DNA from: Antedon mediterranea
Taxonomy: Eukaryota > Echinodermata > Crinoidea > Comatulida > Antedonidae
Direction of reading: 5' to 3'
DNA length: 64,000 nucleotides
Assembly: GCF_964355755.1 (NCBI RefSeq)
Contig: NC_092679.1
Location: 20,326,932-20,390,931 of the forward strand
Position 1 is the stretch's first letter; each line of letters opens with the position of its first letter. The position numbers and the translations under genes were made by a program. Positions 1,097 through 60,480 of the stretch are shown here, one piece after another. Below the pieces are notes generated by a model. The model saw nothing but the letters and a program-made list of their open reading frames with translations, made no database searches and was not told where the DNA came from.

Positions 1097-1165
1097 GATA
1101 TAGATGGATGTAAATAGTATCACATTTAAGAAGTTTCTGACAATACTCAGCGTAGCTTTACAGAA
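1097..1165 (+). pseudogene. Relic of a tandem-DED exon (5' part)
   Basis: A TTTATAATTTACAG acceptor is followed by GATATAGATGG and then CACATTTAAGAAGTTTCTGACA. This matches the start of the DED exons at 12601 and 15713 (GAT..., then a TTTAAGCAGTTTCTAACAGA-type word). The frame is broken by a TAA soon after the acceptor, and similarity fades after about 70 bases. It is best read as the dead second exon of an upstream array copy. Confidence 0.55.
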
Positions 1166-1309
1166 AAGATGAATATCAGAAAAAAATGAATATTTATGCA
1201 AACCATTTCCATACGCTTATATCATTCAAGTTTCAATACATCTTTGCGTACGATTGGTGACGTGAAATAATGTTCAAGCATCCTTGCAAACAAAATACGT
1301 TTAAGTGAA

Positions 1310-2346
1310 ATGGCAAGATATGATGACAATATCATGTTTAGTACCTTGAAATCTAATTTCAGTAAATGTTATGATTTTCAATCAAACTACAAATGGTTGA
1401 GATTCTGTTTATTTGACTATCTACCTATAGGTGACCTCACTTCAAAATCAACAAGTCAGTTACTAAATTGTCTTGACAATATAGGGGTTATTGCACCTGA
1501 TGATGTTCATCTATTATCAGAAATTGCTGAGCTTTCACGTTTGAAAAAAGCAAAAGTCATTGTAAATGAGTATATGAAGGGAAGTGGTCAAAAAAAGTCG
1601 GAAAGAAAATTGTCGGAATACAGGAAACAACTGTTTGAGGCATCACGAAACGTCGACGAAAAAGATGAGTTAAGTAGAATTATTTCTCACTATGGTTTGA
1701 GTGATGACGAATTCTCAACTATTTGGGATGTTGTATTTTATCTGGAGAAACAAAAACTTTTACAAGATAGGCCAGACGAAATATCGAGGTTTTCAGATTG
1801 TCTTAATCAAACCGCAAAGAATTATCTACTTGGAATTTGTATGTATTTTTCTTTGTTTTTTTAACAAGTATTCTAATACGTTAAAGTTAATTTCTAGATT
1901 AACGGTATAAACTAAAATTAGGCCTATGTATTGTGTTGAAAAACTAGATGTGTACTGTAAAGTTATATCTATGTTTTATTAAAGCCACTGAAGTACAGTT
2001 TTCTTTAAGAGAACGAACAACTGAAGATTCTGACGAACATAAACTGATTTTATCTACCTGTAATGACAAAGGAGAAATAATTGCATATTACCTCTATTTT
2101 CGTGGTTGCATTAAAGAGGTAACGATCACAGAAGGATCTATAGTATTCCATGTAACTTTAGTTGATCCCAGTGCCCTTGAAAAACTATGGAAGCTTCATC
2201 AAAGTGGGCAGCTTCTGAAAGATATAGCAGAAATACTTTTTACAGAGAAACGTCGAAAAGAGTTTGAACAGACTTGGGAGACACAGTTTGACCATCAAAT
2301 ATACAACGATGCTCTTAATAAGTTAAACGGAAAAGGTGAGGAATAA
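1310..2346 (+). CDS. Array gene 1: tandem-DED protein with TRADD-N-like C-terminus
   Basis: Two exons, 1310-1838 and 1985-2346, give 296 residues. The donor is GTATGT after ATT T (phase 1). The acceptor is TTTTATTAAAG, and the junction codon TCC keeps the frame. Residues of about 8-85 form a DED-like bundle (hydrophobic pattern NYKWLRFCLFDYLPIGDL, then VHLLSEIAEL). Residues of about 100-175 form a second bundle with the family signature IWDVVFYLEKQKLL. The second exon encodes an alpha/beta segment (FRGCIKEVTITEGSIVFHV, then ALEKLWKLHQSGQLL), the pattern I associate with the TRADD-like N-terminal domain of invertebrate NLR and adaptor proteins. No signal peptide or membrane helix is seen, so a cytosolic adaptor is inferred. 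It is the most divergent copy and the only one whose ATG lies inside the DED exon. An AATAAA lies at 2542-2547. The exon structure is solid; the TRADD-N name is a pattern call. Confidence 0.68.
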
Positions 2347-2662
2347 GTTAATTTATACCTGGATAATCTAAAAAAGGGATAAATTTACCAGGCCATAGAG
2401 GCCAAACTCCTGAAATGCTTTATGTAGGTATTATTGTATCCGTGATTACCGTTAGCCCATTATTAATTACCTAATTGGCATAAATTCAACTGCTATTTGA
2501 AAATGTTTACCTTAATTACACCAAACAATCTAGTAGCTTGTAATAAACAATGACACATTTGATTTGTTGTTTACACCACCACCACCATATAAAATATGGT
2601 TATCTCTTGAGACCATTAGCTATTATATTTTAAATAAGATTGTATCTAAATTGATATTTTAG
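2347..2662 (+). other. 3' UTR/spacer of gene 1
   Basis: AT-rich, no coding signal. A canonical AATAAA at 2542-2547, about 200 bases after the stop codon, is the likely cleavage signal of gene 1. Confidence 0.5.
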
Positions 2663-2831
2663 AATTTAGCACATTTGTCAGATGTCACGAATTAATTTTG
2701 ATCTTATATATATATATATATATATCTCCTCTTGCTTCTTTTCTCGATCCAGAACAAAGACCAAATGTGGTGCAGAAACTAAAAACAGTTGTTCGTCGTA
2801 GAGCCAGGAAAAACGAGAATACAGTAAGGAT
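2663..2831 (+). pseudogene. Relic of the linker exon, possibly an orphan exon
   Basis: The stretch from about 2741 matches the linker exon of gene 3 (13506-13623): the words TTTCTC, then ACAAAGACCAAATGTGG, then a phase-0 donor ACA|GTAAGG. The following intron bases (GTATGAACTTTT) match as well. An open frame (L-D-P-E-Q-R-P-N-V-V...) runs back through a (TA)n run to an AG at 2661-2662. Neither a DED exon before it nor a TM exon after it is present, so it is probably what remains of a deleted copy between genes 1 and 2. Its phase-0 donor could in principle splice onto the gene 2 DED exon. Confidence 0.5.
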
Positions 2832-3039
2832 AGTATGAACTTTTCTTGTACTGTAGACTTCACGAAGCTAAATCTTACAGTCCAAAGTGAAACAATTTCT
2901 AATGAATAATTATTGTTTCTTAATAACGTATTAATAGGTGTAAAACAATAATGATTCTTGTCTATTATTTTTCTGCACATGTTTATATTGTAGACTTTCA
3001 ATTATATTATAGTTATGTTTTTTCTATAACTGGTAAAGT

Positions 3040-3086
3040 ATGGCAGAGGCAGCTGCGTACAACTTTCTAAAACCTAAGCTTGAAGA
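3040..3086 (+). other. Candidate start exon of gene 2 (uncertain)
   Basis: An ATG at 3040 opens a short sensible frame (M-A-E-A-A-A-Y-N-F-L-K-P-K-L-E-D). A block inside it (GTACAACTTTCTAAAACC) recurs near 6343, so it belongs to the duplicated unit. I could not find a phase-0 donor that would join it to the DED exon at 3210, so this is only a candidate for the missing N-terminus. Confidence 0.25.
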
Positions 3087-3209
3087 TGGGTGCTGTGGTA
3101 TTTACAACTATATATTTTACGCGTACATTTATTACCGTGACACACTGTGCATCTGTATTATATTTCTCATATTGATATAAATACTTATTGATAACTTTTA
3201 TATTGACAG

Positions 3210-5887
3210 GATAAAGATCAAATCAAATGTCAACAGTTTCTATCAGACCTCAGCAAAGACTATGGTGGTGTAAAGTATCTTTGGTTAAGAATGCTATTAC
3301 ATAATAGTATACCCATTCAATGTTTAGAAGATAGCAAAACAGGACTTGAGTTATTCAATGAACTTGTTAAACTTGGAAAGATTTCAAATACTGATGTCAC
3401 CCTCTTGTCCGAGGTTGCTGAAACCACCGAACAGACATCGGCAAAAAAGCGTATAGCCAAATATAAGAAGAAAATACAATGCAGTGAAACAGGAACAAGA
3501 TTAACACCATATCGAAAGGCACTTTTTGAAGCCCTCAGGAATGTTGGGCGTGATGGTTTACATGATGTTATCAATTTCTACAAACTGATAGATCGTAACT
3601 ATGACAACATATGGGATGTTGTTTTCCACCTTGAGCAACAGGAACTTTTAGATGATACCCAGGAAAAGTGCAAACTGTTTGCAGATTTACTAAACAAGAA
3701 AGCACAAAATATTTTACTAAGTAAGTCAGACTTAATCTTATTTGATCAAATGTAATTATACTACTGTACTCTAGTACATTTTTAGTTTCAAATTGGATAA
3801 TTTTCCAATGAGTGTAAAAAATATTCGTTGCCATTGTTTGAAAACATGCCTCTACAGAGTTGAACTTGGTGAAATATTTAATTCGATTCTTTAACATTCT
3901 CGTATGGAAAACGGATAACTCGACCTTGTCTTTTTTTTTCACAGATGCTGTCAATAATAGGTAAGAAAATGGCTAAAAATAACGTTTAAAAAAAAGAATC
4001 AGGTTGGGATTGCCTTATCCAAGTATGACTTGTTGCGTTAAGAATATATACAGTAGCTTGGTTATAGTCCTAAATTATTAAAAATATGACTAAACTTTCT
4101 TAATTTAGAGAAGCAGTACCTCTTCAGAAGAGAATAATTCAGAAAATGAAAAGCAAACAAATATTTACAGTAAGGATATTATAAACTAAGTTTAAGTCTT
4201 ATATACTTGTTGTTTTCATCTTTTAACTGTTTTTTCGACCATAATTATATAATGGACACTGCCATAATATGTGAATAACCCTACCGCTGTTTATATCGCA
4301 GGTCCTATACAATGTCTTTGAGTTAGTTTATATGTTATATACAGTAGATGACATGAGTAAATATCTTTATTTATATATTTATATTATTTTTTTTAGGTTT
4401 AACTCATTGATTCGTGTTTGTGACTTTTGGATAAGCTTGAACAAAGTTCTAAACCATAATAATTAATTTTGTCTTATATCTGTTTTCTAGCCTAACAACT
4501 GGTATTGGATACCTGCACTGTTATTGGTTGCTTTTGCAATACTACATCACTTATCAGGGCATATGAAGGAAAATAATCGTAAGCAAATCCTTAAAATATC
4601 CCAGTTCTTTAATCTTAAATCTCTAAATTATAAGTTTGCGCAGTTGTGATTTGTTTTTGTGTGGTAGGCCTACTAGAGAGGAAGATGATTTGACTGAAGC
4701 TTTACAAATATTCGTAAAATATTGTTATTAATAGGGAGGTTTCGCAACCTTACGAATACGATAACGAAAACGGATACGTCATACATTTGTGAAACTTTTG
4801 AGCTGATCCCCATTTCATATTCGTAAAGCGTATTCGTGTTGTTTGACGAACATCACCAGTCATATTCGTAACTACAAAACGAGTATAGTTTTTTTTATCT
4901 ATTTTGCACATTTTGCATTTGAATCAGGAATGATTCATGATTCATGATTATAATATAATTATAGATTTATTGAAAGTAATTTACTAAAGTAATTTACTAA
5001 AAAGACAAGTCAATTTTGATAAATAGCAGTTTTTAAAGTCCTCACTGGCTTTGATGTTACGCTAGGCCTAGGCAGCCAAGCACCAAGCAACACGTACCTG
5101 CGCTTCGCTCAAATTTACCGCAGTCATATTTTGGACGCGCCTCAATATTTCGTTGCCATGCGAAACAGATTTTTTTATGGCTTACGAAAACGAATACGTG
5201 TGCTTGACGTATCCGTTTTCGTTATCGTATTCGTAAGATTGCGAAACCTCTCTATTATTCTTTTGTTTGTATTTAGATTGTATTCATAATGATTTCAACC
5301 ACAACAAATTTCCGTGTGCTAATTGGACACATCATGGTGCCAAAAAATGGATGTTAGGAAATGAAAGATATAATGTCGGCTACGATTTAGGAAAAAATTA
5401 CTCAGGAGGATCAGGTAAAATGATGTCATACATTGTAAATCAGAAAATTCATACAATTTTTGCTTACCAATAACGACAAATGAATTGATCCTTTAATTAA
5501 CTGATGATGTATGAAATGGTGTCATGTAAGTCCTACTTTATATTTGCAGGTAACTATTACATTTATGTTGCAAAAAGTGATGAAGAATCCATAAAAGAAG
5601 GCTGGCTTAACAGTCCAAAAATACCAGACGAATGGGACAATGTGTGTATTGCATTTGATTTTTACAATAGTAACAATGATTCACGAATTAAGTTATATCG
5701 TATTACTAATGACAAAGACAAGGAAGTCATCCAAATTCCTTATAACAAAGGGGAATGGAAGCGTCTTTCTATCGATAAGCCTGTTAATACCAATACTTAT
5801 CACTATCTGATTGGCGGATTAGCATCTGGTGACGGTCAACAACTAGTTGTTCTTGACAATATTTTGATTAGTAAGGGCAAATGCTAA
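3210..5887 (+). CDS. Array gene 2: tandem DED - transmembrane - MAM protein
   Basis: Exons 3210-3720, 3945-3960, 4109-4169, 4491-4578, 5277-5414 and 5550-5887 join in consistent phases (1, 2, 0, 1, 1) to give 383 residues from the first DED residue. The start codon is not resolved. Residues of about 1-80 and 92-168 are two DED-like bundles (signature NIWDVVFHLEQQELLDD). A basic segment (QKRIIQKMKSKQ) precedes one hydrophobic helix at about 200-214 (WYWIPALLLVAFAILHH). Residues 226-383 look like a MAM domain: four cysteines, an N-terminal C-x11-C, SPKIPDEWDNVCIAFDFY in the middle, and an end of the form VVLDNILISKGKC. The basic flank before the helix argues for N-inside/C-outside (type II), leaving DEDs in the cytosol and MAM outside. 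A palindromic MITE occupies most of the intron before the MAM exons. An AATAAA lies at 6241-6246. Joining DEDs to a MAM ectodomain is unusual. Confidence 0.72.
4736..5250. mobile_element. MITE-like inverted-repeat element in gene 2 intron
   Basis: About 515 bases with long terminal inverted repeats of some 45 bases. The left end begins GAGGTTTCGCAACCTTACGA and continues with a CGTATCCGTTTTCGTTATCG-type word in reverse. The right end is its complement and finishes GATTGCGAAACCTC. The core includes a short direct repeat (AAAGTAATTTACTAA) and has no coding capacity. It lies wholly inside the intron between the TM exon and the first MAM exon. No other copy is seen in the window. Confidence 0.8.
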
Positions 5888-6640
5888 GTTTACTCTGGAT
5901 TTATGATACAGTGTGTGATAATGTGTAATATAATGTAATACTCAATGAATTCCAACAATGACTTAACAATACGAATACCAACTATAATGTTCTTTCACTC
6001 CACTCCTTTTTTTCATTTTGGTTTATTTCCTTTCTATTATATAGTATTACTATTTTGTTTTTACAATTTATGATTTTATATTTTATATTTAGTTTCAAGA
6101 AAATCTATATTTGTGTATTCTTTTAAACCATAATAATCATATTTAATAATTTGCATTATTTGTATAATACTAAACTTTTAGTCTGATTTGAGAAGAATGA
6201 TTTTGTTTTTATTTGTTTTCTCTAAGGTAAAGCTTTGTATAATAAATATATATTTCTCTGTTATTCTATTATTTATTTGTTAATTAGACGGAGTTTCATT
6301 TGATTAAATTTAAATAAATATTAAGGTGATAAGTGAGTACAACTTTCTAAAACATAAGCACATGTTTGCGCTATGAGCATGGTAATGTAGTCTATACTGC
6401 ATATTAGATCAGGGAGATAAAAATAGATTGTTATACCTCCATGATTAGATGTATAACTATAAGAGGGGAGGAAAAGAAATACGTCCAAATCTATATTTAG
6501 TATGGCTTCTACCTTACACTATTTCCTAAGACGCAATCATGGTTCACTTGGCTGATATGCATTTTCAATGATGAAAATACTGTCGTAATTTCCTACGTTA
6601 CTCACAAGTAGGCTCTCTCTCTCTCGCACCAGCAGTTAGA
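5888..6640 (+). other. 3' UTR of gene 2 and spacer
   Basis: Very AT-rich, no coding frame. AATAAA at 6241-6246 is the likely polyadenylation signal. A block near 6340-6365 repeats the one at 3054-3075 (GTACAACTTTCTAAAAC). A short CT run lies near 6616. Confidence 0.4.
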
Positions 6641-6798
6641 ATCAAAATCATTCATAGCAAATTGTATTTTTATACTTTGGGAATTTTCTTTTGTCAGTAA
6701 AACGTATTGAAATTAATTCATCATGCATATCAACAGTGGTATGTAAACATAATTTTGTTTAAAATGGTGGCCAAGGCTAAATACAATATATCAGCACG
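6640..6798 (+). promoter_or_regulatory. Leader/first-exon region before gene K, with ATG changed to ACG
   Basis: This stretch is closely similar to 15092-15263, which precedes gene 4 (shared words such as CATTCATAGCAAATT and TTTAAAATGGTGG). Gene 4 has its ATG directly before GTAAGT. Here the same place reads CAGCACG|GTAAGT, so the donor is intact but the start codon is lost. It may now serve as a non-coding leader exon for the kinase exon. Confidence 0.5.
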
Positions 6799-7269
6799 GT
6801 AAGTGTGTACAGCGTATTTTTTACAAATTATTCCAGCAGCAAAATAATACCATCTGTACAACTAATATTGAATCTGATATTTCATTATCCTCTTTATCGA
6901 GTGATGTTACTATAGGCATGTTTATTTCAGTGTAAAATTATATTGCGTATTCGTATTCATATAGGCCTACATAGGATTGAAATGGTGTGTTTCAATGTGA
7001 TTCTGAACAGTAAGATATTTTAGCCACATAAAAAACCTATATTATTTTAAAATTCAGGAACAGTAACCGTTGACAACTCGTGTTCCTAGACATAACTCGA
7101 TAATCTCCACACGTACAGAGGGTCTACAAACTGTAGAACATTATAATGTTAATACAGGATTCATGTCTGTAATTTCAATAATGATTACGAGCATAGCAAC
7201 TTCTTATGCAGAATAATGCATGCCATACGCACATCGTTTTTTTCTTATTGATGAATTATTTATTTACAG

Positions 7270-7350
7270 GATAATTATTAAATTTAAGCAGTTTTTAACC
7301 GTTCTCTGGAAAGCTCAAGTTTACCGCAATTATTAAATATCCCTTGTACC
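7270..7350 (+). pseudogene. Relic of a tandem-DED exon before the kinase
   Basis: A TTATTTACAG acceptor is followed by GATAATTATTAAATTTAAGC and then AGTTTTTAACC, matching the start of the DED exons elsewhere (GATACAGACCAGATCAAATT...). TAA stops follow at once and similarity is lost by about 7340. It marks the second exon of the copy whose first exon is the ACG leader at 6798. Confidence 0.6.
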
Positions 7351-7509
7351 ATCCTAGAGGGTGTGAGCGCACCTTCAAGTACTTTTGAATTTGTTGTCGA
7401 TTTGCAGTTACGTAAAATAATTATGTTTGATATGGTCGTCTTAGTTATCGATCTAGATATCTAGGATACCACTACGGCTCCATTTTATTTTATTCTTTTG
7501 TATTTCCAG

Positions 7510-7600
7510 TTTGTATTGAAAACAATCCATGCATTTAATTCGTGGTATTGATTACGCGTTTGTATACAATATAGTCAAATCAGGGGCACTAAATGGATAA
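7510..7600 (+). promoter_or_regulatory. Predicted 5' UTR of the kinase exon with an overlapping uORF
   Basis: A strong pyrimidine tract and acceptor end at 7509 (TTCTTTTGTATTTCCAG). Between it and the kinase ATG (7593), an ATG at 7529 opens a 23-codon frame whose stop TAA (7598-7600) overlaps the kinase start in another frame. If the leader is used as predicted, this uORF would reduce kinase translation or require reinitiation. Confidence 0.4.
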
Positions 7601-10540
7601 CTTGAAAATATTTAAACAAGAAGATATCGAGATCAAGCAGCAGTTGGGAGGTGATTATAAGTTCAATGTGTTTTTAGGAATTGTGAAAAAAACTGGCAAT
7701 TTAGTAGCAGTGAAAAATATCAAAGTTGACAAACGGGAGTTGGATATATTGAAAGAGCTACGGCACGCAAATGTTATCCGACTGTTAGGAACTATTGACC
7801 GTGACACGTCAACAGGGTTAGTGCTTGAATACGCACCCAAAGGAAGCCTATATGATTTCTTAAATATTAGGCCTATAAATCACTATGACTATTTAGATTG
7901 GTGTAAACAGGCCGTACGCTCGGTCGTGTATATCCACGATCGAGCCGTATCGCATAGAGATATAAAATCTAAGAATTTTTTAGTTTTTGGAGATAATATC
8001 AAGCTAATTGATTTCGGATTGTCAAATGATGTCACTTCAACTACCTCGAATAGTGGATGCGGTACATTTATCTGGATGTCTCCTGAAGTAATGAATGGAT
8101 CACAAGGGGTTGATCATTTCAAATCAGATGTATACTCTTTAGGAATAGTCTTATGGGAATTGTATCACCAGAGAAGGCCCTATGAGGATCTGAATGTGCC
8201 AAATATCATTCAACACGTGGTTAATTATGGTCATCCAGAAATTGATGCTGAATGTGACGTACGGTTACGTGATGTAATGCTAAAATGCTGGAATTACCAA
8301 CCAGATCAACGACCACACGCGGAGCAGATTCTGACGTCACTCGATAACGGAACTGAAACATTTGTCAGAAGTCGTTCCAAGAAAAAAAAGAAACAAATAT
8401 CAGGCATACATAAAGTAAGCATGTCATGACTTTTTCTTTTCGACAAAAACGTACTGTAACAACTGAGCATGCAGATTTTAATATATTTGATAGCGTTCTG
8501 ATTTTGATATTGACCTGTTCTTTTAATGGTATTATATGCCTATCTTTTTTATCGATAAATTTTACATTATTTTCAGGACAATCATATCGAATTTAGAAAG
8601 ATCAACCAACCAGATCAACGGCCACATCCGGAGCAGATTCTGACGTCACTCGATAACGAAACAGAAACATTTGTCAGAAGTGGTTCCAGGGAAAAACAGA
8701 AACAAATATTAGGCATACATAAAGTAAGAATATAACAACTGAGCATGCACATTGTAATATATTTGATATTCTATTTTTAAATTGACCTGTTCTTTTAATG
8801 GTATTATATGCCTATCTTTTTTATCGATACATTTTACATTATTTTCAGGATACTCATATCGAATTTAGAAAGCTTCTATCAGATCTCAGCAAAGACTATG
8901 TCGGTTTAAAGTACCGTTGGTTAAGAATGCTTCTACATGGTATTATACCTATTGGATGTTTAGAAGTTAGCACTATAGGACTTCAATTATTCAATGAACT
9001 TGTTGAACTTGGAAAAATTTCAAAAACTGATGTAAGCCTTTTGTCAGAGGTTGCTGAAACCACTGAACAGACATCGGCAAAAGATCGTATAGTCGATTAT
9101 AAAAGGACTATACAATGCAGTGAAACATTAGGAACCAGTTTAACATCATATCGAAAGGCACTTTTCGAAGCCCTCAGGAATGTTGGGCTTGATGATTTAC
9201 TTAAGGTTATTGGTTTTTATAAACTTAAAGACTATGGCTTTAACAATATATGGGATGTTGTTTTTTACCTTGAGAAAGAGAAACTCTTAGACGATACACA
9301 GGACAAGCTAAAACTATTTGCAGATCTCCTGAACGAAATGGCACGAAGTATTTTACTAGGTAAATTAGACTAGAGAAGATTAAGAGGATCTCGGACAGTA
9401 TACTGTTAATCTTTTCTAAATTGGGAGTATCATTATCATTGGTCTAGAAAGTTAGTTATAAGTGCATTGATTTCTCAATGGATAGCATACCCTTACCATA
9501 GATTATTATGAACAACTATTGCCTGAGCATATTTAAACTTGGGGAAAGGTTTCATTAGAGTTTTAATCTTAAAATGTATTTATGAAATTGTAGAACACGT
9601 TAAATGTTTCCATTTATTCCTTTCAGCAGCCGCTCCCAAGACTCTGGAAAGAAGGTGAGAATAATGACTTCACCAAAAGTAATCTTAATGAATTACCTCT
9701 GAAAAATAAATATAATTGTCCAGCAATGACGTAATGGTCAAATTGTTTGTATATTATATGTAGTTAATGTATTTATGCTTACACCATGATGCTGGAATTG
9801 GATTAAATTAATTAAATTGACAATTCTCATCCCTTTGTCCGAAAAGTAGTCCCATTAAAAAATATTTGAAACGCTTTTAGCATCAGTCCATATTTATTTA
9901 ATGCGATAATACTGTCCAAATATAGAGAGAAAACCAATTCTTCACCACACGTCAATGCTCCTTTGGATTGGCAAAAAGAAGGACTCAGACGAATAAAGGA
10001 AAATGATCTTAAGAGAAATTATTCTGGGACGGTAGGCTGTCTATCTATTAAGTATAACTGAATTTTTGAAATAGAAAGGAGTAGTTATTGGACCTTGTTC
10101 TGAACCCCTGACATTATATTCCAATTTGACACTAATAAATAAACATTTCTGTCGTCTCACATGACACTGGTTTTGTGAAGACGCGTTGGCCTCCAAAACG
10201 ATAGTTTAATAATGTCCGTGTTTTCATTGTAGCTTAATTATGTATTTTTAATTGGCCTGGTATTTTATTGTAGGTCTGTTCATAACGATCTTTGTTCCAA
10301 CGTTAGAAAAAGAAGATAAATAACTTGTTATTTATTTTAACATTACAGGTGAGAGTATATGATCGAGAATTCAAGTTTGATGGTGGCCATGAATGGTGGA
10401 AGTTTTTTTCAACAGCTACCGATATTGCAACTGGGATTAAAGCGAAAGCTGGGGGTTACAAATCAATGGGCGGGGCAAATGAACATGCTATCGAAAACCT
10501 CATTTATAAACTAATGGCGCAGGGTATCATAAGAAATTAG
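7593..10540 (+). CDS. Array gene K: protein kinase - tandem DED fusion
   Basis: Exons 7593-8414, 8577-8723, 8849-9359, 9627-9654, 9926-10031 and 10349-10540 join in frame (phases 0, 0, 1, 2, 0) to give 601 residues. Residues of about 15-255 are a complete Ser/Thr-type (TKL/RIP/MAP3K-like) kinase: beta-3 lysine in VAVK (K41), helix-C glutamate in RELDIL (E49), HRDIKSKN (121-128), DFG (140-142), MSPEV, and DVYSLGIVLWE. The glycine loop is irregular (LGGDYKFNVFLG). All key catalytic residues are present, so activity is likely. The whole kinase is one exon. Exon 2 is a duplicated kinase tail (49 residues). Residues 324-493 are the tandem DED-like bundles. A 35-codon linker (DWQKEGLRRIKENDLK) and the shared 63-residue C-terminal module follow. 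No membrane helix is present, so it is probably cytosolic. RIPK1 pairs a kinase with a death domain; here the partner is DED-like. Subfamily assignment is uncertain. Confidence 0.75.
8577..8723 (+). other. Chimeric duplicated exon of gene K
   Basis: This in-frame 147-base exon starts like a DED exon (DNHIEFRK) and then switches, at the word ACCAGATCAACG, to a copy of the kinase tail (PDQRPHPEQILTSLDN, ETFVRS, then GIHK). Its flanking introns repeat each other too, including GTTCTTTTAATGGTATTATA before each acceptor. The exon was thus born from a tandem duplication of about 290 bases with ends inside the kinase exon and the DED exon. Both sides are phase 0, so including or skipping it keeps the frame. 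Confidence 0.75.
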
Positions 10541-11803
10541 AACTTAATCAAACATCAATTGATGTAAATAATATAGTCTTATTCTATATATTCTATAAAT
10601 GTAAGTATTTGATTGATTGATCACTTTATTTCAGAATACGTATTCCATAGGCCTATATACAAAACGGAAACTATTGCAATTTCGATTCCTAACAGTTGTT
10701 GTATACCATTTTCACATATTAACTGGAATATAACAGTTTTGAAACATTGTACATTGATTAATTTGTTTTTTACAATTAAATGTTTAATCTTTCTACATAA
10801 CAAAAAAAAAACATAATAAAGTATAACAGGGGAGTCGCGGAAAAGCAAAAGTAATATCTTGTGATGTGCTTGATCAGCCCCTGTCAACAGGACGATACAA
10901 TAAAACCGAAAAATATAGAAAAATACATTGAAAAATATGCTATAATAAAATGTTAATAAAAGTCTTCTAAAAATACATTTGCTATCTGAACATTCTGATT
11001 TTATAAAAGTTAAAAGTTATCTATTCTTTCCATAAACCTAGGATGTTGATAAATCGCGTAGATCAGTGAGTCCATTTTATCCATGATAGTCAATAACATC
11101 AAACACACGTTCACCTTAAATCTTAGTCTCAACTGACTTCAAATGGGTGCTTGATCTCACCTTATATTGTATACAAACGTCTACAATACGTATGTCCCCC
11201 AACCCCATTCATACGCAACACCACCCATTGATCCTGTTATTTAAAGAGTTTGTAATGTACATATGACGTACGGTCCATAAGTATTTAAATTTTATTTAGT
11301 ATTATTTATTTGGCTTTTAACCTTTGGAACGGTGTCAAATAAACAAAGCAACATAAAATACAACTACATACAATAAAATAAATACAAAGGGAAAACCAAT
11401 CAATCATGTATAATATTTATTTGTTTACCCTGGATTTTTCCCATGATTTTTCCCTGGATTTTTCCCATGATTGCTTCCAACCTCTTGACTTGTGTACGTG
11501 GTTTACTGCACTGTATATTTCCCGTAGTGATAACAATTATAATATCCAAAATGATAGTTTATAATATCAGTTCAAATGGTTTACCACCGCACATGAGTGA
11601 ATGAATGACCCGATGATTTGTAGTCTACTGGAACCATACCAAACCATTCTTCTGGTTGAATAATTAATAAGTTGTATTGTTATACTCCGGAATTCCCCTT
11701 TATATGAATTGTGTACATAGCACACTCAGTGGATTATAGGTAATATCATTGTTGTGTTGTATGACTTCCTCGTAATCATATCGACACGTACACCTTGTAA
11801 AAC
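10541..11803 (+). other. Spacer between genes K and 3 with retroelement tails
   Basis: No coding frame that I trust. AATAAA at 10815-10820 is a possible polyadenylation site of gene K. The stretch 10607-10940 looks like a retroelement end on the minus strand (see separate entry). Near 11300-11400 the complement reads like another transcript end (AAAGCCAAATAAATAA). A tandem CCCTGGATTTTTCCCATGAT pair lies near 11438-11470. Sequence just before 11804 should hold the promoter of gene 3 (TTTATATG near 11699). Confidence 0.4.
10607..10940 (-). mobile_element. Probable 3' end of a non-LTR retroelement
   Basis: Read on the minus strand, the stretch contains CGCGACTCCCCTGTTATAC, then TTATGTAGAAAGATTAAA, and ends in GAAATAAAGTGATCAATCAA. 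A second, shorter copy lies at 59898-59975 on the plus strand (CGCTACTCCCCTGTTATAC ... ATGTAGAAAGATTGAAAAT). A shared end with a simple-repeat tail is typical of a LINE or LINE-mobilised SINE. There is no reverse transcriptase frame. Confidence 0.5.
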
Positions 11804-14691
11804 ATGGTAAGTACAACGTATTTTGAACAAATTGTAAACACTTTTAGGATTAAGAGAGTGAAAATACCATTTTAAAACAAACTTTATGTAGACCTAATCT
11901 AGATATATGAGATGCCATTTTTATTCTGCTTAGAATAAGCTGTAGGCTTCGAATTAAAGAACCTAGTACATCTTTCGAGACGAGTAGGGGGTTACCCCGG
12001 TGTATTAGTACATCACAGCCACTGATCACCAATTGGGCCCTCTGGGAGACCAGTCTTTGACTGAAGAGGTTACCCAGTATAAATATAAATTTCAATTCAA
12101 TTCAATTCAATAGGCTGTAGGCTTCAAATAGGCTGTAGGCTTCGAGTAGGCTGTTGTCTATCTAGTTATGGACAACAGAAAATTATCAATCATATTTCTT
12201 CTGTGCGCCTACTGTACGGATAGGATGATGTTTAGCTAAAATACAAGTTTGAATGGATATTCAAATTCTGTATCTGCTACACACTTCAACAGTGTATTAC
12301 TATTTATGTTGTAACTATTACGACATTGATATTATTCTATACCTCCTTCAATACGCCAAGTCATGTAGCCGTTTGTTGTTTTGTGAATTGTGTTTTAAAA
12401 TCATTACCGCAACACTTAACAACAATAGGCCTGGTACGTTCGAAATCAAAGTTAATCACATTACTTTGTTCGCCTACTGGAAAACAAGCTTAACACAGAC
12501 ATTTGTCAATATTGCTCGTCGTAAGCTAAGCCATTTTTTAAATGTAAATGTAAATGTAGCCATCTTTTTTCTCATTGATATTTCATTTATTATTTTACAG
12601 GATACAGACCAGATCAAATTTAAGCAGTTTCTAACAGATCTCAGCAAAGACTATGTTGGTTTAAAGTACCGTTGGTTAAGAATGCTTCTACATGGTGTTA
12701 TTCCCATTCAATGTTTGGAAGTTAGCACTACAGGACTTGAACTGTTTAACGAACTGGCTGAACTTGGACAAATTTCAAATACCGATGTTACCCTTTTGTC
12801 TGAGCTTGCTAAAACAACTTCTCAGAAATCGGCAAAACAGCGTATAGCCAAATATAAGAAGAAAATACAATGCAGTGAGACATTAGGAACCAGTTTAACA
12901 CCATATAGGAAAGCACTTTTTGAAGCTCTCAGAAATGCTGGGCCTAACGATTTACTTAAGGTTATTGGTTTCTACTCGCTGAAAGACTATAACTTTGACA
13001 ATATATGGGATGTTGTTTTCCACCTTGAACAACAAGAACTTTTGGATGATACCCAGGAAAAGTTCAAACTGTTCGCAGATCTTCTAAACAAAAAAACAAG
13101 AAGTGTTTTTCTAGGTAAGTCAGACTCACTCTTACTGGAATTATACATTTCTGGTTTTTATTTCATCTCTAAACTTTTTTTTCGATTCTAAATTGAGTGA
13201 GGTGTTAAAGATGTTAACTGTCTCATTAATTATTTTTCCACAGCTGCTCTTAAGACTCTGAAAAGGTAAGAAAATGAAATTTACCAACAATTTATAATTT
13301 TGTTAGTCAGACTAACAAAAAAAAAGTGTAAATGTTTGTGAACTAGATGAAAGGGGTTTGATTTTCAAGATATATAGGCCAATAATTGATACTTGGATTT
13401 AATAAATGCAACATATTTGTTTGCCAATCTCGTTGTCTGAAACCGACACCGAGTCTTCAATTATCTTAAACTATAATAACGGTATAATAAACTTTATAAA
13501 ATTAGAGATGCAACCACAACTTCACCTCAACTACTGGATACACAATCCGAACCAAACCTTCAGCGTTTTCTCAAACTGGACAAAAGACCAAATGTGGCGA
13601 GGTACTTAGCAGGAATACATACAGTAAGGAGAGTATGAACTTTTTAAAATGTATAATAGGCTTAGTGAAGTCAACATTCATTTTTCGTACAATGTTTATA
13701 TTGTTTTATTTTGTACTGAGGTCATTATAAGTCGTGATTGTAAATGACACAATCAGAGTTTCCTCGTCTCAATTACGTTACGCATATTCTAAATTATTAT
13801 TCTTGTATGATATTCATCTGTTTTCTAGACTGTTCGTATATATTGGCCATGGATAGCACTGAGTATATTAATCATGTTCGTCGCCATTCAACTTCCAAAA
13901 TTCAACTTACCATTAACCCCCAAAGCGCCCTCAAGAGATTGGCAAGCGGAAGGGCTCAGACGAATGAGGGAAAATGATCTTAAGAATAATAAACGAGGAA
14001 CGGTAAGACCTTTTTAACTAATTTACAAATATACTATATGAAGTATAATATCTGAATGTTAGGAATTATTATTATTTAAATTCCTTCATTCTGATTAAAT
14101 AATAAGAAGAGATGCGCCTGGTAACTGAGATAGCTGCCCAATTATCTTCGTCATTGCAGTTACAAAACTGAATTGCAAGTATAAAATTCACAATAAAGTG
14201 GGTAAAAAGAGAAAAAAAAAACCAGTAACAATCTATATTTAGAAATTATTTAAACCTCCCAATGATATTAGAATTAATTAAGTAATTTATAAACGGTTAA
14301 TGTGTACCATGGAACACCAGGAATAATAAATAATAAATAACATTTTTTATTGATTATTTAAAATATTATCTGGATACACCCGCATGCGACAAGGCGGCAT
14401 ATAACAATGATTAATGCTGCTAATCTTATATTATTCTTTCTTTATTTTTATTCTGTTTTTTTTTTTGTGAATACATATTTGTTTATTTTAATATCACAGG
14501 TGAAAGTATACGATCGGGAATTCAAGTTTGAAGGTGGCCATGAGTTTTGGAAGTATTACTCGACCGCTACTGATGTTGTAACTGGGACCAAAGCGGAAGC
14601 TAAGGGGTATCAGTCAATGGGTGGGGCCAATGAGCATTCTATTGAAAACCTCATTTATAAGCTCATGGCAAAAAAATCGATTAAAAATTAA
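11804..14691 (+). CDS. Array gene 3: tandem DED - transmembrane - C-terminal module
   Basis: Predicted exons: the ATG at 11804-11806 (exon end, followed by GTAAGT), 12601-13114, 13244-13265, 13506-13623, 13829-14002 and 14500-14691. Phases agree throughout (0, 1, 2, 0, 0) and give 340 residues. Residues 2-172 are the tandem DED-like bundles (FLTDLSKDYVGLKYRWLRM, then NIWDVVFHLEQQELLDD). A polar linker rich in S/T/P/Q follows. Residues of about 225-241 are one membrane helix (WPWIALSILIMFVAIQL). Then comes a short charged linker (DWQAEGLRRMRENDLK) and the shared 63-residue module (VKVYDREFKFEGGHEFW ... GGANEHSIENLIYKLM). Arg/Lys lie before the helix, which favours the N-terminus inside. The C-terminal module is not recognised. 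AATAAA at 14878-14883. Intron 1 (794 bases) carries a SINE fragment. An open frame starting at 12253 extends upstream of the DED exon but runs through intron. Confidence 0.75.
11955..12111 (+). mobile_element. SINE 3' fragment in intron 1 of gene 3
   Basis: The element runs from TAAAGAACCTAGTACATC through GGGGGTTACCCCGGTG and CTGGGAGACCAGTC to a tail TATAAATATAAATTTCAATT followed by (CAATT)n. This body and tail are of the kind found in invertebrate SINEs. It is bordered on both sides by GCTGTAGGCTTC(G/A)AAT, a likely target duplication of about 16 bases, although that word occurs a third time just downstream. Confidence 0.55.
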
Positions 14692-15260
14692 AACTAAATT
14701 TGATATGAATCATAATTAGAATATATAGGTTGATTTAGTTTTTCTGAAGAACCCTTTTTATCGTTTATGTAATCTTTCATGTACATTGATATTTTAAAAA
14801 TTATTATGTAATAGTACTACCGTATATCATAATGGCATAATTCATTGTTAGGCATTTTGTGTATTTTAATACTTTATAATAAATAATATCTATAAGTAAA
14901 GTAGTCCTAGTTCGAATTGCATTGCAGATGTTTGAGAAAGAGGGAGGGTGGGGGATACGTTTTATTTAAAAATACCAGACGAATGGAATGAAGCGTGTCT
15001 TAAATTTAAATACTTACTGACGGAGATACAAATCAACGAATTATGGTAGATCATGTTAAAAAGGGCGAACCTGAAAACGTGTCCAGCATGCTAAACCATT
15101 CATAGCAAATTCTATTTTTATTCTTTGGAATTTCCTTTTATGAATAAAATCAATTGAAATTAATTCATGCATGACCATTTCAATTGTACGCAGAATGAAT
15201 TGTGTTTAAAATGGTGGATTAAATACAATATACAGTATCAGGTTAGGAACACTTTGAAGC
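14692..15260 (+). other. 3' UTR of gene 3, spacer and 5' region of gene 4
   Basis: The 3' UTR to about 14960 is nearly the same as that of gene 4 (18488-18750), including the AATAAA and a purine-rich GAGAAAGAGGGAGGG. A MAM-exon relic lies at about 14975-15050. From about 15092 to the start codon the sequence matches the stretch before gene K. Confidence 0.5.
14975..15050 (+). pseudogene. Relic of the MAM exon
   Basis: The word AAAAATACCAGACGAATGG followed by AA/TG..GCGTGTCTT is the same as in the second MAM exon of gene 2 (from 5618). Downstream words such as GAGATACAAATCAACGAATTATGG track it loosely. It is short, frame-broken and has no partner exons, so a MAM tail once lay here, next to gene 3, and has decayed. 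Confidence 0.6.
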
Positions 15261-18200
15261 ATGGTAAGTAGGCCTACAGTTTACCAATAGCAAAAAAATA
15301 GCATCTTTACAACTATATTTGAATCTGATATTCCATTATATTCTCGTCTATTTCGAGTGATGTTACTAGGCATATAGTTTATGTTACCATCGACGTGGGC
15401 CTACAATGTAAAATGATATTTCCTCGGTGTAGGCCTACGTCTAAATAAATGGGTGCTATTCAGGGTGGTGCTAGTTGATTCTGAACTAAGATATTTTAGT
15501 CAATGTAAAGTAAGTATGTATTTTAAAAGTCATTCACTAACCGTTCTCTCTAAATTTGTGTTCCAATTACCCACACATAGGTCTACAAATGTACATCGCA
15601 TGATTCATGTCTAATCTGCCAATGCTTATGACTCGTCGTCATATCATAGGAACTTTGCCTAATGTCATATAAGTCAAACATTTTTTTCATATAGATAATT
15701 GTTATATTACAGGATCATATAGATCAGCGATTTTTAACAGACCTAAGTGAAGACTATGTTGGTTTAAAGTATCGTTGGTTAAGAATGCTTCTGCATGGTA
15801 TTATACCCATTGGATGTTTAGAAGTTAGCACTACAGGACTTGAATTATTCAATGAACTTGTTGAACTTGGAAAGATTTCAAAATCTGATGTAACACTTTT
15901 GTCAGAAGTTGCTGAAACCACTGAACAGACATCGGCAAAAGATCGTATAGTCGATTATAAAAGGACTATACAATGCAGTGAAACATTAGGAACCAGTTTA
16001 ACATCATATCGAAAGGCACTTTTTGAAGCCCTCAGGAATGTTGGGCGTGATGATTTACTAAAGGTTATTGGTTTTTATAAACTTAAAGACCATGGCTTTA
16101 ACAATATATGGGATGTTGTTTTCCACCTTGAGAAACAGGAACTCTTAGAAGATACCATGGAAAAGATCAACATTTTTTCAAATCTACTAAACAAAAAGAC
16201 AGGAAGTAAATTACTAGGTAAATCAGACTCTTACTTAATATAATATACATTTCTGTTTATAAATTAGTGTTATTAGTAAAGTAAGTTTTTAGGGAACTTG
16301 GAGAGTTTAAAAAAAATATTAATCATTTTTTTAATGGAAGTTGGTGAGTTTTAGAGTCCAGTAACCATTGCTATATAATAGCTTGCACATAAATACACTT
16401 TGGTGGAAGATGTCATTCGGGTTTGAAACATTTAAAAAAGTTCTCGTATATATTACAGTATCTTCTCTAAAAATGAACAAATATTATGAAAAACACAAGT
16501 TAAATCATTCTTCTGTTTTCCACAGCTGCTGCTTCCAAGACTCTCGCAATTAGGTAAGAATTAATGATTATTAAAACATGGAATTTTATTTATTATTTCG
16601 GTTTTGTAAACTGTCTTCATCCAATCAGGCCTGTATAAGAAAATAAATTACCACTATTATACTGTATTAAAAACGTTAAATATATTGTAAAAACTTCCCA
16701 AATTTAGAGGAGCAACTGCACCTTCACCTCAAGCAGACTTGGATGGACGGCTAGCTTCACAATCAAAATCAAATCCTCTTTTGGCAGCACCTTCCCAGGA
16801 TTTTCAACAAGAAGAGCTCAGACAAAGAGAGGAAAATAATATTACCAAGAAAAGTGATGTCAGTGGAACAGTATGTTTTGTTTAAATTATTAATTAACTA
16901 ATGCAGCCTATATAATATGTATTTGATCGGTTTATCAGTCTTGACATCTAAATAATTTTCAAAAAAAAAACAACACCGCCTTTCTTTTCCTTCAGTCGAT
17001 TCAAAGTTCTCTGACGTTCACAACATTTTAGGCAGTTTTAAAATTGTTTATAATCATGCTTAGACCATAGATCAAACGCATAGCAGAGTTTGACGTCACT
17101 CATACCGAAACTGAAACAATTGTATGGAAAAACAAACAAATTAGGTTGTTATGAATTGTATTAACTTGTACGTAAATATCTAGTCCAAGCGTCAAACAAT
17201 TCTTCATACACAATGTGTAGATTTGTTTTAAACAAGGTGAAATTATTTTGTAATTTTTATAAGGCCTCTTAAGTTACGGTATACGATATCCACTCGACAT
17301 TATAATTAGTTTAATCAGGGAAAAGTTAAATTACATTTAAATCTTCCCTGGTTTAATTGACATGTGTAACATTGGTATTGACTACGAATCAATCTGGTTA
17401 TTTCTTGACCAAATTCCAAGTAATTATTTCTTTCTTCTGTTTCCTAGTCTGTCTACAGATATTGGCCATTGATAGCACTGAGTATTGTGTTGTTGGCGTT
17501 AGTTGCCAATATATACCCTTATAAAGTTGATGAAATACGACTTCCCCTATTCGAACAGGTAACCACGCCTTCACCACAGCCACACTCTGATGGCATAGAA
17601 CCGGTAGCACAACCAGTTACGGAACCAACCACAAAACCAGTTGGAGCAACCACCGAACCTACGAAATTTATATTGCCATTAACCCCTACAGCGCCCTCAA
17701 GAGACTGGTCGGCGGAAGGGCTCCGACGAATGAGGGAAAATGATCTTAAGAAAAATATGCGTGGAACGGTAAGACCTTTTTACTAGTATTAAAAATATAT
17801 AATATGAAGTATTATCTAAATTAACCAAATTCCTTTCATTCTAATCATTATAGTGAAGCGTAGTCGATTTCTTTCCTGGCCTGGTAATGCCAGCCTAGTA
17901 TATTTTTTAATATGTTTTGCCTTTCACTTTATTATCTTCACCATTGCAGTTACAAAACTGAATTGCAAGTATAAATTTACAATAAATTTGTAAAAAGAAG
18001 ATAAAAAAACCAGTAACAACCTATATATAAATTTGACAGATATGAAGAAATTCCTTAAACCGACCAATGATATTAGAATGAATGTTTTAAACGGTTATTG
18101 TGTACAACAGAACACCAGCAAAGATAAATGATAAATAAATTTGTTTATTTCTTATTTACAATATTATCTAGGATACACCTGCATCATGCGAAAAGAAGGT

Positions 18201-18487
18201 ATTATAACAATAACTAATGCTAATCTGATATACTATTCGTTCAGGTGGTTTTTGTGAATACATATTTGTTTATTTTAATATCACAGGTAAAAGTATACGA
18301 TCGGGAATTCAAGTTTGAAGGTGGCCATGATGTTTTGAGTTATCCCTGGTATTACTCGACCGCTACTGATATCGCAACTGGGACCAAAGCAGAAGCTACG
18401 GGGCATCAGTCAATGGGTGGGGCTAATGCTCATGCTATTGACAACCTGATTTATAAGCTCATGGAACAAAATTCGATTAAAAATTAA
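15261..18487 (+). CDS. Array gene 4: tandem DED - transmembrane - stalk - C-terminal module
   Basis: Predicted exons: the ATG at 15261-15263 (then GTAAGT), 15713-16217, 16526-16553, 16708-16870, 17448-17768 and 18287-18487. Phases agree (0, 1, 2, 0, 0) and give 406 residues. Residues 2-169 are the tandem DED-like bundles, partly identical to gene K at base level. Exon 4 ends in a copy of the post-membrane linker (DFQQEELRQREEN), the gene K arrangement, yet exon 5 then adds a membrane helix at about 239-256 (WPLIALSIVLLALVANIY). Next is a Pro/Thr-rich stalk of about 70 residues (TTPSPQP, EPVAQPVTEPTTKP), which looks like an O-glycosylated extracellular spacer, then DWSAEGLRRMRENDLK and the shared C-terminal module. 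The extra linker and a kinase-tail relic in intron 4 suggest a recombinant of a gene K-like and a gene 3-like copy. AATAAA at 18665-18670. Exons 4, 5 and 6 meet in phase 0, so skipping exon 5 would give a soluble form. Confidence 0.75.
17066..17146 (+). pseudogene. Relic of the kinase tail exon inside gene 4 intron 4
   Basis: The words AGATCAAACG, TTTGACGTCACTC, CCGAAACTGAAACA and GGAAAAACA(A)ACAAATTAGG match, in order, the end of the kinase exon and its duplicate (8297-8414 and 8600-8723). The frame is broken and the phase-0 donor is lost. A kinase-bearing copy therefore once extended into this position. Confidence 0.65.
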
Positions 18488-59321: not shown

Positions 59322-59388
59322 GGCCGCGTGGCCTAATGGACTTCGACTTCGAATCGGAAGATTGTGGGTTCGAGTCCCATCGTGGTCA
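59322..59388 (+). pseudogene. Truncated tRNA-Arg(TCG) copy
   Basis: Compared with the intact gene at 60408-60480, both acceptor strands, the anticodon loop and the T arm are the same, but TAAGGCGTC after AATGGA is replaced by CTT. Six bases of the D arm and the start of the anticodon stem are missing, so a normal cloverleaf cannot form. Confidence 0.85.
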
Positions 59389-60407: not shown

Positions 60408-60480
60408 GGCCGCGTGGCCTAATGGATAAGGCGTCCGACTTCGAATCGGAAGATTGTGGGTTCGAGTCCCATCGTGGTCA
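60408..60480 (+). tRNA. tRNA-Arg (anticodon TCG)
   Basis: 73 bases fold as a full cloverleaf. The acceptor stem pairs GGCCGCG with CGTGGTC (two G-T pairs), with discriminator A. The anticodon stem TCCGA/TCGGA encloses the loop CTTCGAA, so the anticodon is TCG (Arg, CGA codons). The T arm holds GGTTCGAGTCC (B box) and the D region TGGCCTAATGG (A box). No intron. The following TTTTTATG offers a short pol III T-run terminator. Confidence 0.95.

What the first reader, a model, noticed from the sequence alone, without database searches (positions are those of the whole stretch)
1310..18487. Tandem array of tandem-DED proteins with interchangeable tails
Five same-strand genes share one DED-DED exon but carry different partners: TRADD-N-like, TM+MAM, kinase, and TM+unknown module. 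Every exon chain can be joined with matching phases. DEDs are known from FADD, caspase-8/10, c-FLIP and a few others. An array that swaps membrane, kinase and adaptor modules around one DED core reads like a lineage-specific signalling family, perhaps immune or cell-death related. The phases and similarities are visible; the role is inference.
Basis: partly seen in the sequence, partly recalled or inferred. Interest (0 to 1): 0.9.

Follow-up and report, generated by a model that had tools for sequence, protein, structure and literature searches.

The report
Mosaic array of tandem-DED genes
In an unnamed animal, a row of neighbouring genes attaches one cell-death-type docking unit (a tandem death effector domain) to kinases, membrane anchors with outside domains, or an adaptor domain, and the pieces have been swapped between neighbours; it is part of a very large, probably immune, gene family and shows how such signalling proteins are re-assembled.

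Summary
Five same-strand genes at 1310-18487 each carry a single-exon tandem DED (tDED) and, by splice-site reading, join in frame to TRADD-N, TM+MAM, kinase+tail, TM+tail and TM+stalk+tail. DED1 passes the Pfam DED cut-off in three of five. DED2 is invisible to Pfam, but its model matches caspase-8/FADD DEDs. Pairwise dN/dS is below 1 for kinase and tail exons and for nearly all tDED pairs. The array is larger than reported: 11 tDED copies over ~114 kb, including kinase-tDED-TM-stalk-MAM gene orders that imply inside-out (type II) receptor kinases. Ectodomain and kinase do not track the core phylogeny, so modules were exchanged. One correction: gene 1 (tDED-TRADD-N) belongs to a separate clade found on another chromosome. 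At least ~150 tDED copies exist genome-wide, in front of NACHT, RING-NHL, TRADD-N or a second tDED. A DED-plus-partner expansion in marine invertebrates is published (Kaur et al. 2021), so this is a new variant, not a new kind. Not found in the papers searched: tDED receptor-kinase/MAM architecture, the orphan tail (five copies genome-wide, all here), within-array mosaicism. Role (tDED scaffold recruiting caspase-8-like enzymes) is inferred; no transcripts were available.

The parts
1310..1838 (+). g1 exon 1: ATG + tandem DED (divergent clade)
   Evidence: ORF from ATG, donor TTT|GTATGT phase 1; DED 22.1 bits, below cut-off; groups with C2 tDED-TRADD-N genes 99/99
1985..2346 (+). g1 exon 2: TRADD-N-like domain, stop
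   Evidence: PF20694 24.5 bits against cut-off 23.7; 39 matches genome-wide, many beside tDED exons
3210..3720 (+). g2 tandem-DED core exon (phase 0-1)
   Evidence: PF01335 38.0 bits
3945..3960 (+). g2 micro-exon (phase 1-2)
   Evidence: splice signals and phase
4109..4169 (+). g2 basic linker exon (phase 2-0)
4491..4578 (+). g2 transmembrane exon
   Evidence: Kyte-Doolittle 19-mer maximum 1.57
5277..5414 (+). g2 MAM exon 1
   Evidence: phase 1-1; two of the four MAM cysteines
5550..5887 (+). g2 MAM exon 2, stop
   Evidence: PF00629 42.5 bits
7593..8414 (+). g3 intronless MAP3K-like protein kinase exon (VAVK, HRD, DFG intact)
   Evidence: Pkinase 161 bits; PDB best kinase matches include MAP3K12/ZAK/TAK1; motifs
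8577..8723 (+). g3 chimeric exon: core-exon start fused to duplicated kinase tail
   Evidence: repeats D8, D9; phase 0-0, open
8849..9359 (+). g3 tandem-DED core exon
   Evidence: PF01335 34.9 bits
9627..9654 (+). g3 micro-exon
9926..10031 (+). g3 linker exon ending in the stalk-end motif DWQKEGLRRIKEN; no TM
   Evidence: (D6)
10349..10540 (+). g3 orphan tail module, stop
   Evidence: alignment A1; only five copies found in the genome
11804..11806 (+). g4 first coding exon: ATG|GTAAGT
   Evidence: aligns with the g5 start
12601..13114 (+). g4 tandem-DED core exon
   Evidence: PF01335 41.8 bits
13244..13265 (+). g4 micro-exon
13506..13623 (+). g4 linker exon ending in kinase-tail-like LDKRPNVARYLAGIHT
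13829..14002 (+). g4 TM exon with short stalk
   Evidence: KD 1.97; phase 0-0
14500..14691 (+). g4 orphan tail module, stop
15261..15263 (+). g5 first coding exon: ATG|GTAAGT
15713..16217 (+). g5 tandem-DED core exon
   Evidence: PF01335 37.4 bits
16526..16553 (+). g5 micro-exon
16708..16870 (+). g5 linker exon with second copy of the stalk-end motif
   Evidence: (D6)
17448..17768 (+). g5 TM exon with Thr/Pro-rich stalk
   Evidence: KD 1.94, stalk 51% T/P/S
18287..18487 (+). g5 orphan tail module, stop
1097..1280 (+). possible decayed remnant of a core-exon start (acceptor + GATATAGATG..., frame broken)
   Evidence: read by eye
7270..7330 (+). possible decayed remnant of a core-exon start in the g3 5' region
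   Evidence: read by eye

Best explanation
A mosaic array of innate-immune/cell-death signalling genes built on one tandem-DED exon. Shown by sequence: the exon chains join in frame; DED1 is a DED by Pfam, DED2 by modelled fold; the same core sits behind a MAP3K-like kinase and/or in front of a TM helix with a MAM or an orphan C-terminal module; and these modules do not share one history. Inferred: the membrane forms are type II receptors with kinase and tDED in the cytosol and MAM or tail outside on a T/P-rich stalk. Ligand or surface contact clusters them; the tDEDs then polymerise, as caspase-8/cFLIP tDEDs do, and recruit other tDED proteins, including the genome's caspase-8-like genes. The kinase form adds MAP3K-type output, the soluble kinase-tDED-tail form (g3) could bridge or compete, and the tDED-TRADD-N protein (g1) would be a cytosolic adaptor. 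Unequal recombination in the array keeps the docking core while exchanging input and output modules.
For: In-frame chains and splice signals. Domains over cut-off. DED2 model: VIA Z 8.0, rmsd 2.1 over 69 residues to a caspase-8 DED structure (7lvm), and Z 8.0, 2.3 over 73 to the FADD DED; the top 20 Foldseek matches are caspase-8, cFLIP or vFLIP tDED entries; the best profile match in the PDB is cFLIP, E 6e-4. Pairwise dN/dS below 1 for kinase and tail pairs and 35 of 36 tDED pairs. Mosaicism: core identity g3-g5 0.891, g4-g5 0.813; tail g3-g5 0.745, g4-g5 0.896 (Fisher p 3e-6, pairs not independent); the kinase gene g3 is sister to the kinase-less g5, 93/88. TM segments in seven genes, T/P-rich stalks in A1, A2 and g5; all four MAM cysteines kept in g2. 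Caspase domains ~6 kb and ~0.5 kb downstream of DED pairs at C2:9.12 and C2:8.90 Mb.
Against: No transcripts, so joins rest on splice signals and frame only. The E/D-RxDL motif of classical DEDs is not kept in DED1 (alignment), so the assembly interface may differ. The structure model is weak overall (pLDDT 57.7, DED1 part mostly under 50). The charge bias around the TM is small and in g4 reversed (K+R in the 15 residues N-/C-terminal: g2 3/2, g4 2/3, g5 3/2), so orientation rests mainly on MAM cysteines, stalk and the lack of a signal peptide. On five taxa alone the core and tail trees are not formally incompatible (AU test); the case rests on distances and the larger core tree. No start exon was found for g2.
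Confidence: 0.6

Rival explanations
1. Dominant-negative or decoy array: the tDED proteins mainly cap caspase-8/FADD-type DED filaments, as c-FLIP does, and the tails only localise them.
For: All window members lack a caspase domain; the best PDB profile match is c-FLIP; two of the examined kinases (A4, C7) are pseudokinases by motif.
Against: Kinase motifs VAVK/VVVK, HRD and DFG are intact in A1, A5 and g3; stalks and a conserved MAM suggest an input function.
Confidence: 0.2
2. Allorecognition or cell-cell contact system: ectodomain-variable type II receptors whose clustering triggers tDED cytotoxicity on non-self contact.
For: Clustered, recombining genes with exchangeable ectodomains and stalk length differences; marine invertebrate TRADD-N expansions have been tied to sessile or aggregating lifestyles (PMC8195603).
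Against: Only two ectodomain kinds (MAM, tail) were seen; no population polymorphism data; the tail is conserved (dN/dS 0.08-0.73).
Confidence: 0.12
3. Mostly relic array: exon copies drifting towards pseudogenes after tandem duplication, few of them expressed as read.
For: A3 has frame breaks, decayed core starts lie at 1097 and 7270, an orphan MAM and a partial kinase exist; dN/dS reaches 0.8-1.1 in some A1/A4/A6 tDED pairs.
Against: Five window genes are fully open with good splice sites; dN/dS is 0.23-0.44 among the g2-g5 cores and below 0.2 for seven of ten tail pairs.
Confidence: 0.08

Closest known systems
DEDD2-clade and NCOA6-clade TRADD-N lineage-specific expansions (Kaur et al. 2021, PMC8195603)
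   Same: DED coupled to TRADD-N, large lineage-specific expansion, constant part plus variable partners; one Crassostrea virginica set has ectodomain-TM-DED-TRADD-N
   Different: Here the constant part is a tandem DED, most array members lack TRADD-N, the DED part precedes the TM (type II order), and kinase-tDED-TM-stalk-MAM and tDED-tail forms were not found described in the papers searched
Caspase-8 / c-FLIP tandem DEDs
   Same: Two DEDs in tandem; modelled DED2 superposes on caspase-8/FADD DEDs; top 20 Foldseek matches are caspase-8/cFLIP/vFLIP tDED entries
   Different: No caspase or pseudo-caspase domain; RxDL motif not kept in DED1; fused to kinase, TM, MAM or tail
RIPK/IRAK/Pelle death-fold kinases
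   Same: N-terminal TKL-type kinase followed by a death-fold module
   Different: Tandem DED instead of DD/CARD; closest solved kinases include MAP3K12, ZAK and TAK1; some copies also carry TM and ectodomain
Death receptors (TNFR superfamily)
   Same: Predicted ectodomain-TM-cytosolic death-fold layout
   Different: Type II order, MAM or orphan ectodomain, DED rather than DD, no CRDs found
DED-NACHT NLRs of amphioxus, sea urchin and cnidarians (PMC2575513)
   Same: DED in front of NACHT also occurs in this genome (L046, L054)
   Different: Here the DED part is the tandem-DED core shared with the array

Membership tests
DED (PF01335) | Pfam score over curated cut-off | tested here: met
   g2 38.0, g4 41.8, g5 37.4 against 35.9; g3 34.9 and g1 22.1 fall short
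DED (PF01335) | second DED also a DED fold | tested here: inconclusive
   no Pfam hit; model residues 90-171 match caspase-8/FADD DEDs, Z 8.0 at rmsd 2.1-2.3 over 69-73 residues, but helical bundles can reach such Z
DED (PF01335) | E/D-RxDL charge motif | tested here: not met
   the cFLIP RIDL stretch aligns with a Q-K-S-A-K stretch of the core profile
Caspase-8/c-FLIP family | tDED followed by caspase or pseudo-caspase domain | tested here: not met
   PF00656 matches lie at other loci, none in the array
TRADD-N lineage-specific expansion | DED + TRADD-N in one protein | tested here: met
   g1 only: 24.5 bits against 23.7, in-frame join; not seen in g2-g5
RIPK family | RIPK-type kinase domain closest | tested here: inconclusive
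   MAP3K12/ZAK/TAK1 rank near the top of the PDB list; no RIPK among the 60 best shown of 532
MAM domain proteins | MAM domain with four conserved cysteines | tested here: met
   42.5 bits; four cysteines
Type II receptor topology | internal TM, no N-terminal signal peptide, ectodomain C-terminal | tested here: inconclusive
   TM in g2, g4, g5, no signal-like N-terminus in the g4/g5 models; orientation not measured
Expressed gene family | transcripts across exon joins | not testable with these tools
   no RNA data held

The most novel reading that the evidence does not exclude
An unreported class of inside-out death-fold receptors: type II membrane MAP3K-like kinases carrying tandem DEDs, with ectodomains (MAM or an orphan module found only in this array) exchanged by recombination among tandem copies, so that a common DED polymerisation core is re-wired to new inputs.
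Probability: 0.35. Interest if true: 0.75.

Novelty: new variant of a known kind. Interest (0 to 1): 0.6.

Why it matters
If right, one small exon serves as the common docking part for membrane receptors, receptor-like kinases, adaptors, NLRs and a RING-NHL protein within one animal, and the array catches module exchange in progress. It would make testable how death-fold signalling is re-wired by recombination rather than by point mutation, and would add a receptor class in which an ectodomain acts directly on a tandem DED without an FADD-like adaptor.

Tried and rejected
DED1-DED2 internal homology by hhalign: none. Pfam and PDB searches with the tail module: no family, no significant match; its AlphaFold model is not usable (pLDDT 51). 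AU test of core against tail topology on five genes: no formal conflict, so distances were used instead. Lox5/ftz parapeptide pattern to place the species: no match, uninformative alone; COX1 not found, so no mitochondrial contig seen. Papers on 18 chromosomes / 354: no candidate species. Literature for DED with MAM: two irrelevant papers. Exact count of tDED genes: the search scores at most 150 of 461 candidates. Rejected: that the core ORFs arise by chance (repeat families of 255-300 nt at 76-94% identity; dN/dS); that g1 is a partner swap within the array. I did not test whether the kinase exon was retroposed.

Full report
Setting. The window is C10:20326932-20390931 of a 354-Mb, 18-contig genome, about 33% GC in the window. 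The species was not identified: no COX1 match, no Lox5/ftz parapeptide match.

Observation. Five stop-to-stop frames hold a ~170-residue core. Reading splice signals by eye and checking phases by script gave five models that stay open end to end: g1 tDED + TRADD-N; g2 tDED + micro-exon + basic linker + TM + two MAM exons; g3 kinase + chimeric exon + tDED + linkers + tail; g4 ATG exon + tDED + linkers + TM + tail; g5 ATG exon + tDED + linkers + TM/T-P stalk + tail. g2 begins at its core acceptor; I did not find its start exon.

Domains. DED passes the Pfam cut-off in g2, g4 and g5; TRADD-like_N, MAM and Pkinase pass theirs. The second bundle has no Pfam match. A five-sequence AlphaFold model is weak overall (pLDDT 57.7, best in the second half), yet the top 20 Foldseek matches are caspase-8, cFLIP or vFLIP tandem-DED entries, and VIA-align places residues 90-171 on caspase-8/FADD DEDs at Z 8.0 with rmsd 2.1-2.3 over 69-73 residues. 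The tool warns that helical bundles often reach such Z, so I call DED2 likely, not proved. The RxDL motif is not kept in DED1.

Coding status. Nei-Gojobori dN/dS is 0.23-1.11 for tDED pairs (35 of 36 below 1), 0.37-0.67 for kinases and 0.08-0.73 for tails (the g2 MAM rows of that call were read out of frame and are discarded).

Extent. Upstream sequence shows the array from C10:20231311 to 20345418 with 11 tDED copies, one of them with frame breaks (A3), four complete and one partial kinase besides tail fragments, MAM exons after A1, A2, A6 and g2 plus an orphan one, and five tails. TM exons follow the cores of A1, A2, A5 and A6. So kinase-tDED-TM-stalk-MAM (A1) and kinase-tDED-TM-tail (A5) occur as gene orders, although those upstream genes were not fully modelled exon by exon.

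History. In a 26-row core tree, g1 groups with tDED-TRADD-N genes on C2 (99/99), while the other nine array cores form a group (91/82); four kinase-bearing genes cluster (100/96), but kinase-bearing g3 is sister to kinase-less g5 (93/88). Core and tail identities reverse for g3/g4/g5 (Fisher p 3e-6, pairs not independent). A 5-gene AU test does not reject a common topology, so the mosaic claim rests on distances, the larger tree and the chimeric exon at 8577-8723.

Genome-wide. The core finds 150 scored matches of 461 candidates; an independent motif finds 150 sites, nine of them a C6 satellite, control 0. Eighteen sampled regions include tDED in front of NACHT (with LRR-like sequence in one), RING-NHL, or a second tDED, and one behind a divergent kinase. 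The tail occurs five times, all in this array. Caspase domains lie downstream of DED pairs at C2:9.12 and 8.90 Mb, giving a candidate effector.

Reading. The best account is a mosaic, DED-based signalling array, probably immune or cell-death related. The published precedent is the DED/TRADD-N lineage-specific expansions of marine invertebrates (PMC8195603), including an ectodomain-TM-DED-TRADD-N set in an oyster. What I did not find described in the papers searched is the tandem-DED core joined to kinase, TM and MAM or the orphan tail. The library holds open-licence papers only.

Limits. No transcripts; splice joins, topology, polymerisation and partners are inferred. Literature absence is weak evidence.

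Noticed in passing
window 4729-5257: Inverted-repeat element, arms 53 nt at 96% complementarity, 423 nt apart (MITE-like), ending 19 bases before the g2 MAM exon 1.
   Followed up: partly
G000:C10:20251607-20253285: A3: tDED copy with a frame break inside the core and a tail nearly identical to that of g3.
   Followed up: partly
L057 (G000:C1:2294001-2300000): Four near-identical tDED exons about 1315 bases apart.
   Followed up: no
L046, L054: tDED exon followed by a NACHT ORF; LRR-like sequence in L054.
   Followed up: partly
L053: tDED exon followed by a RING + NHL-repeat ORF.
   Followed up: partly
L045, L049, L055, L059: tDED exon followed by a second, divergent tDED-like ORF.
   Followed up: no
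L008: DED ORF beside a DEAD/DEAH-helicase-like ORF, resembling a RIG-I-like receptor; read by eye.
   Followed up: no
L009, L010: TRADD-like_N matches that look like DEDD/DEDD2 and NCOA6 relatives by eye.
   Followed up: no
G000:C6:3091702-3092813: Satellite-like repeat matching the WD motif nine times.
   Followed up: no
window 18600-64000: No convincing coding ORF of 95 aa or more; two tRNA-like matches at 59322-59388 and 60408-60480.
   Followed up: partly
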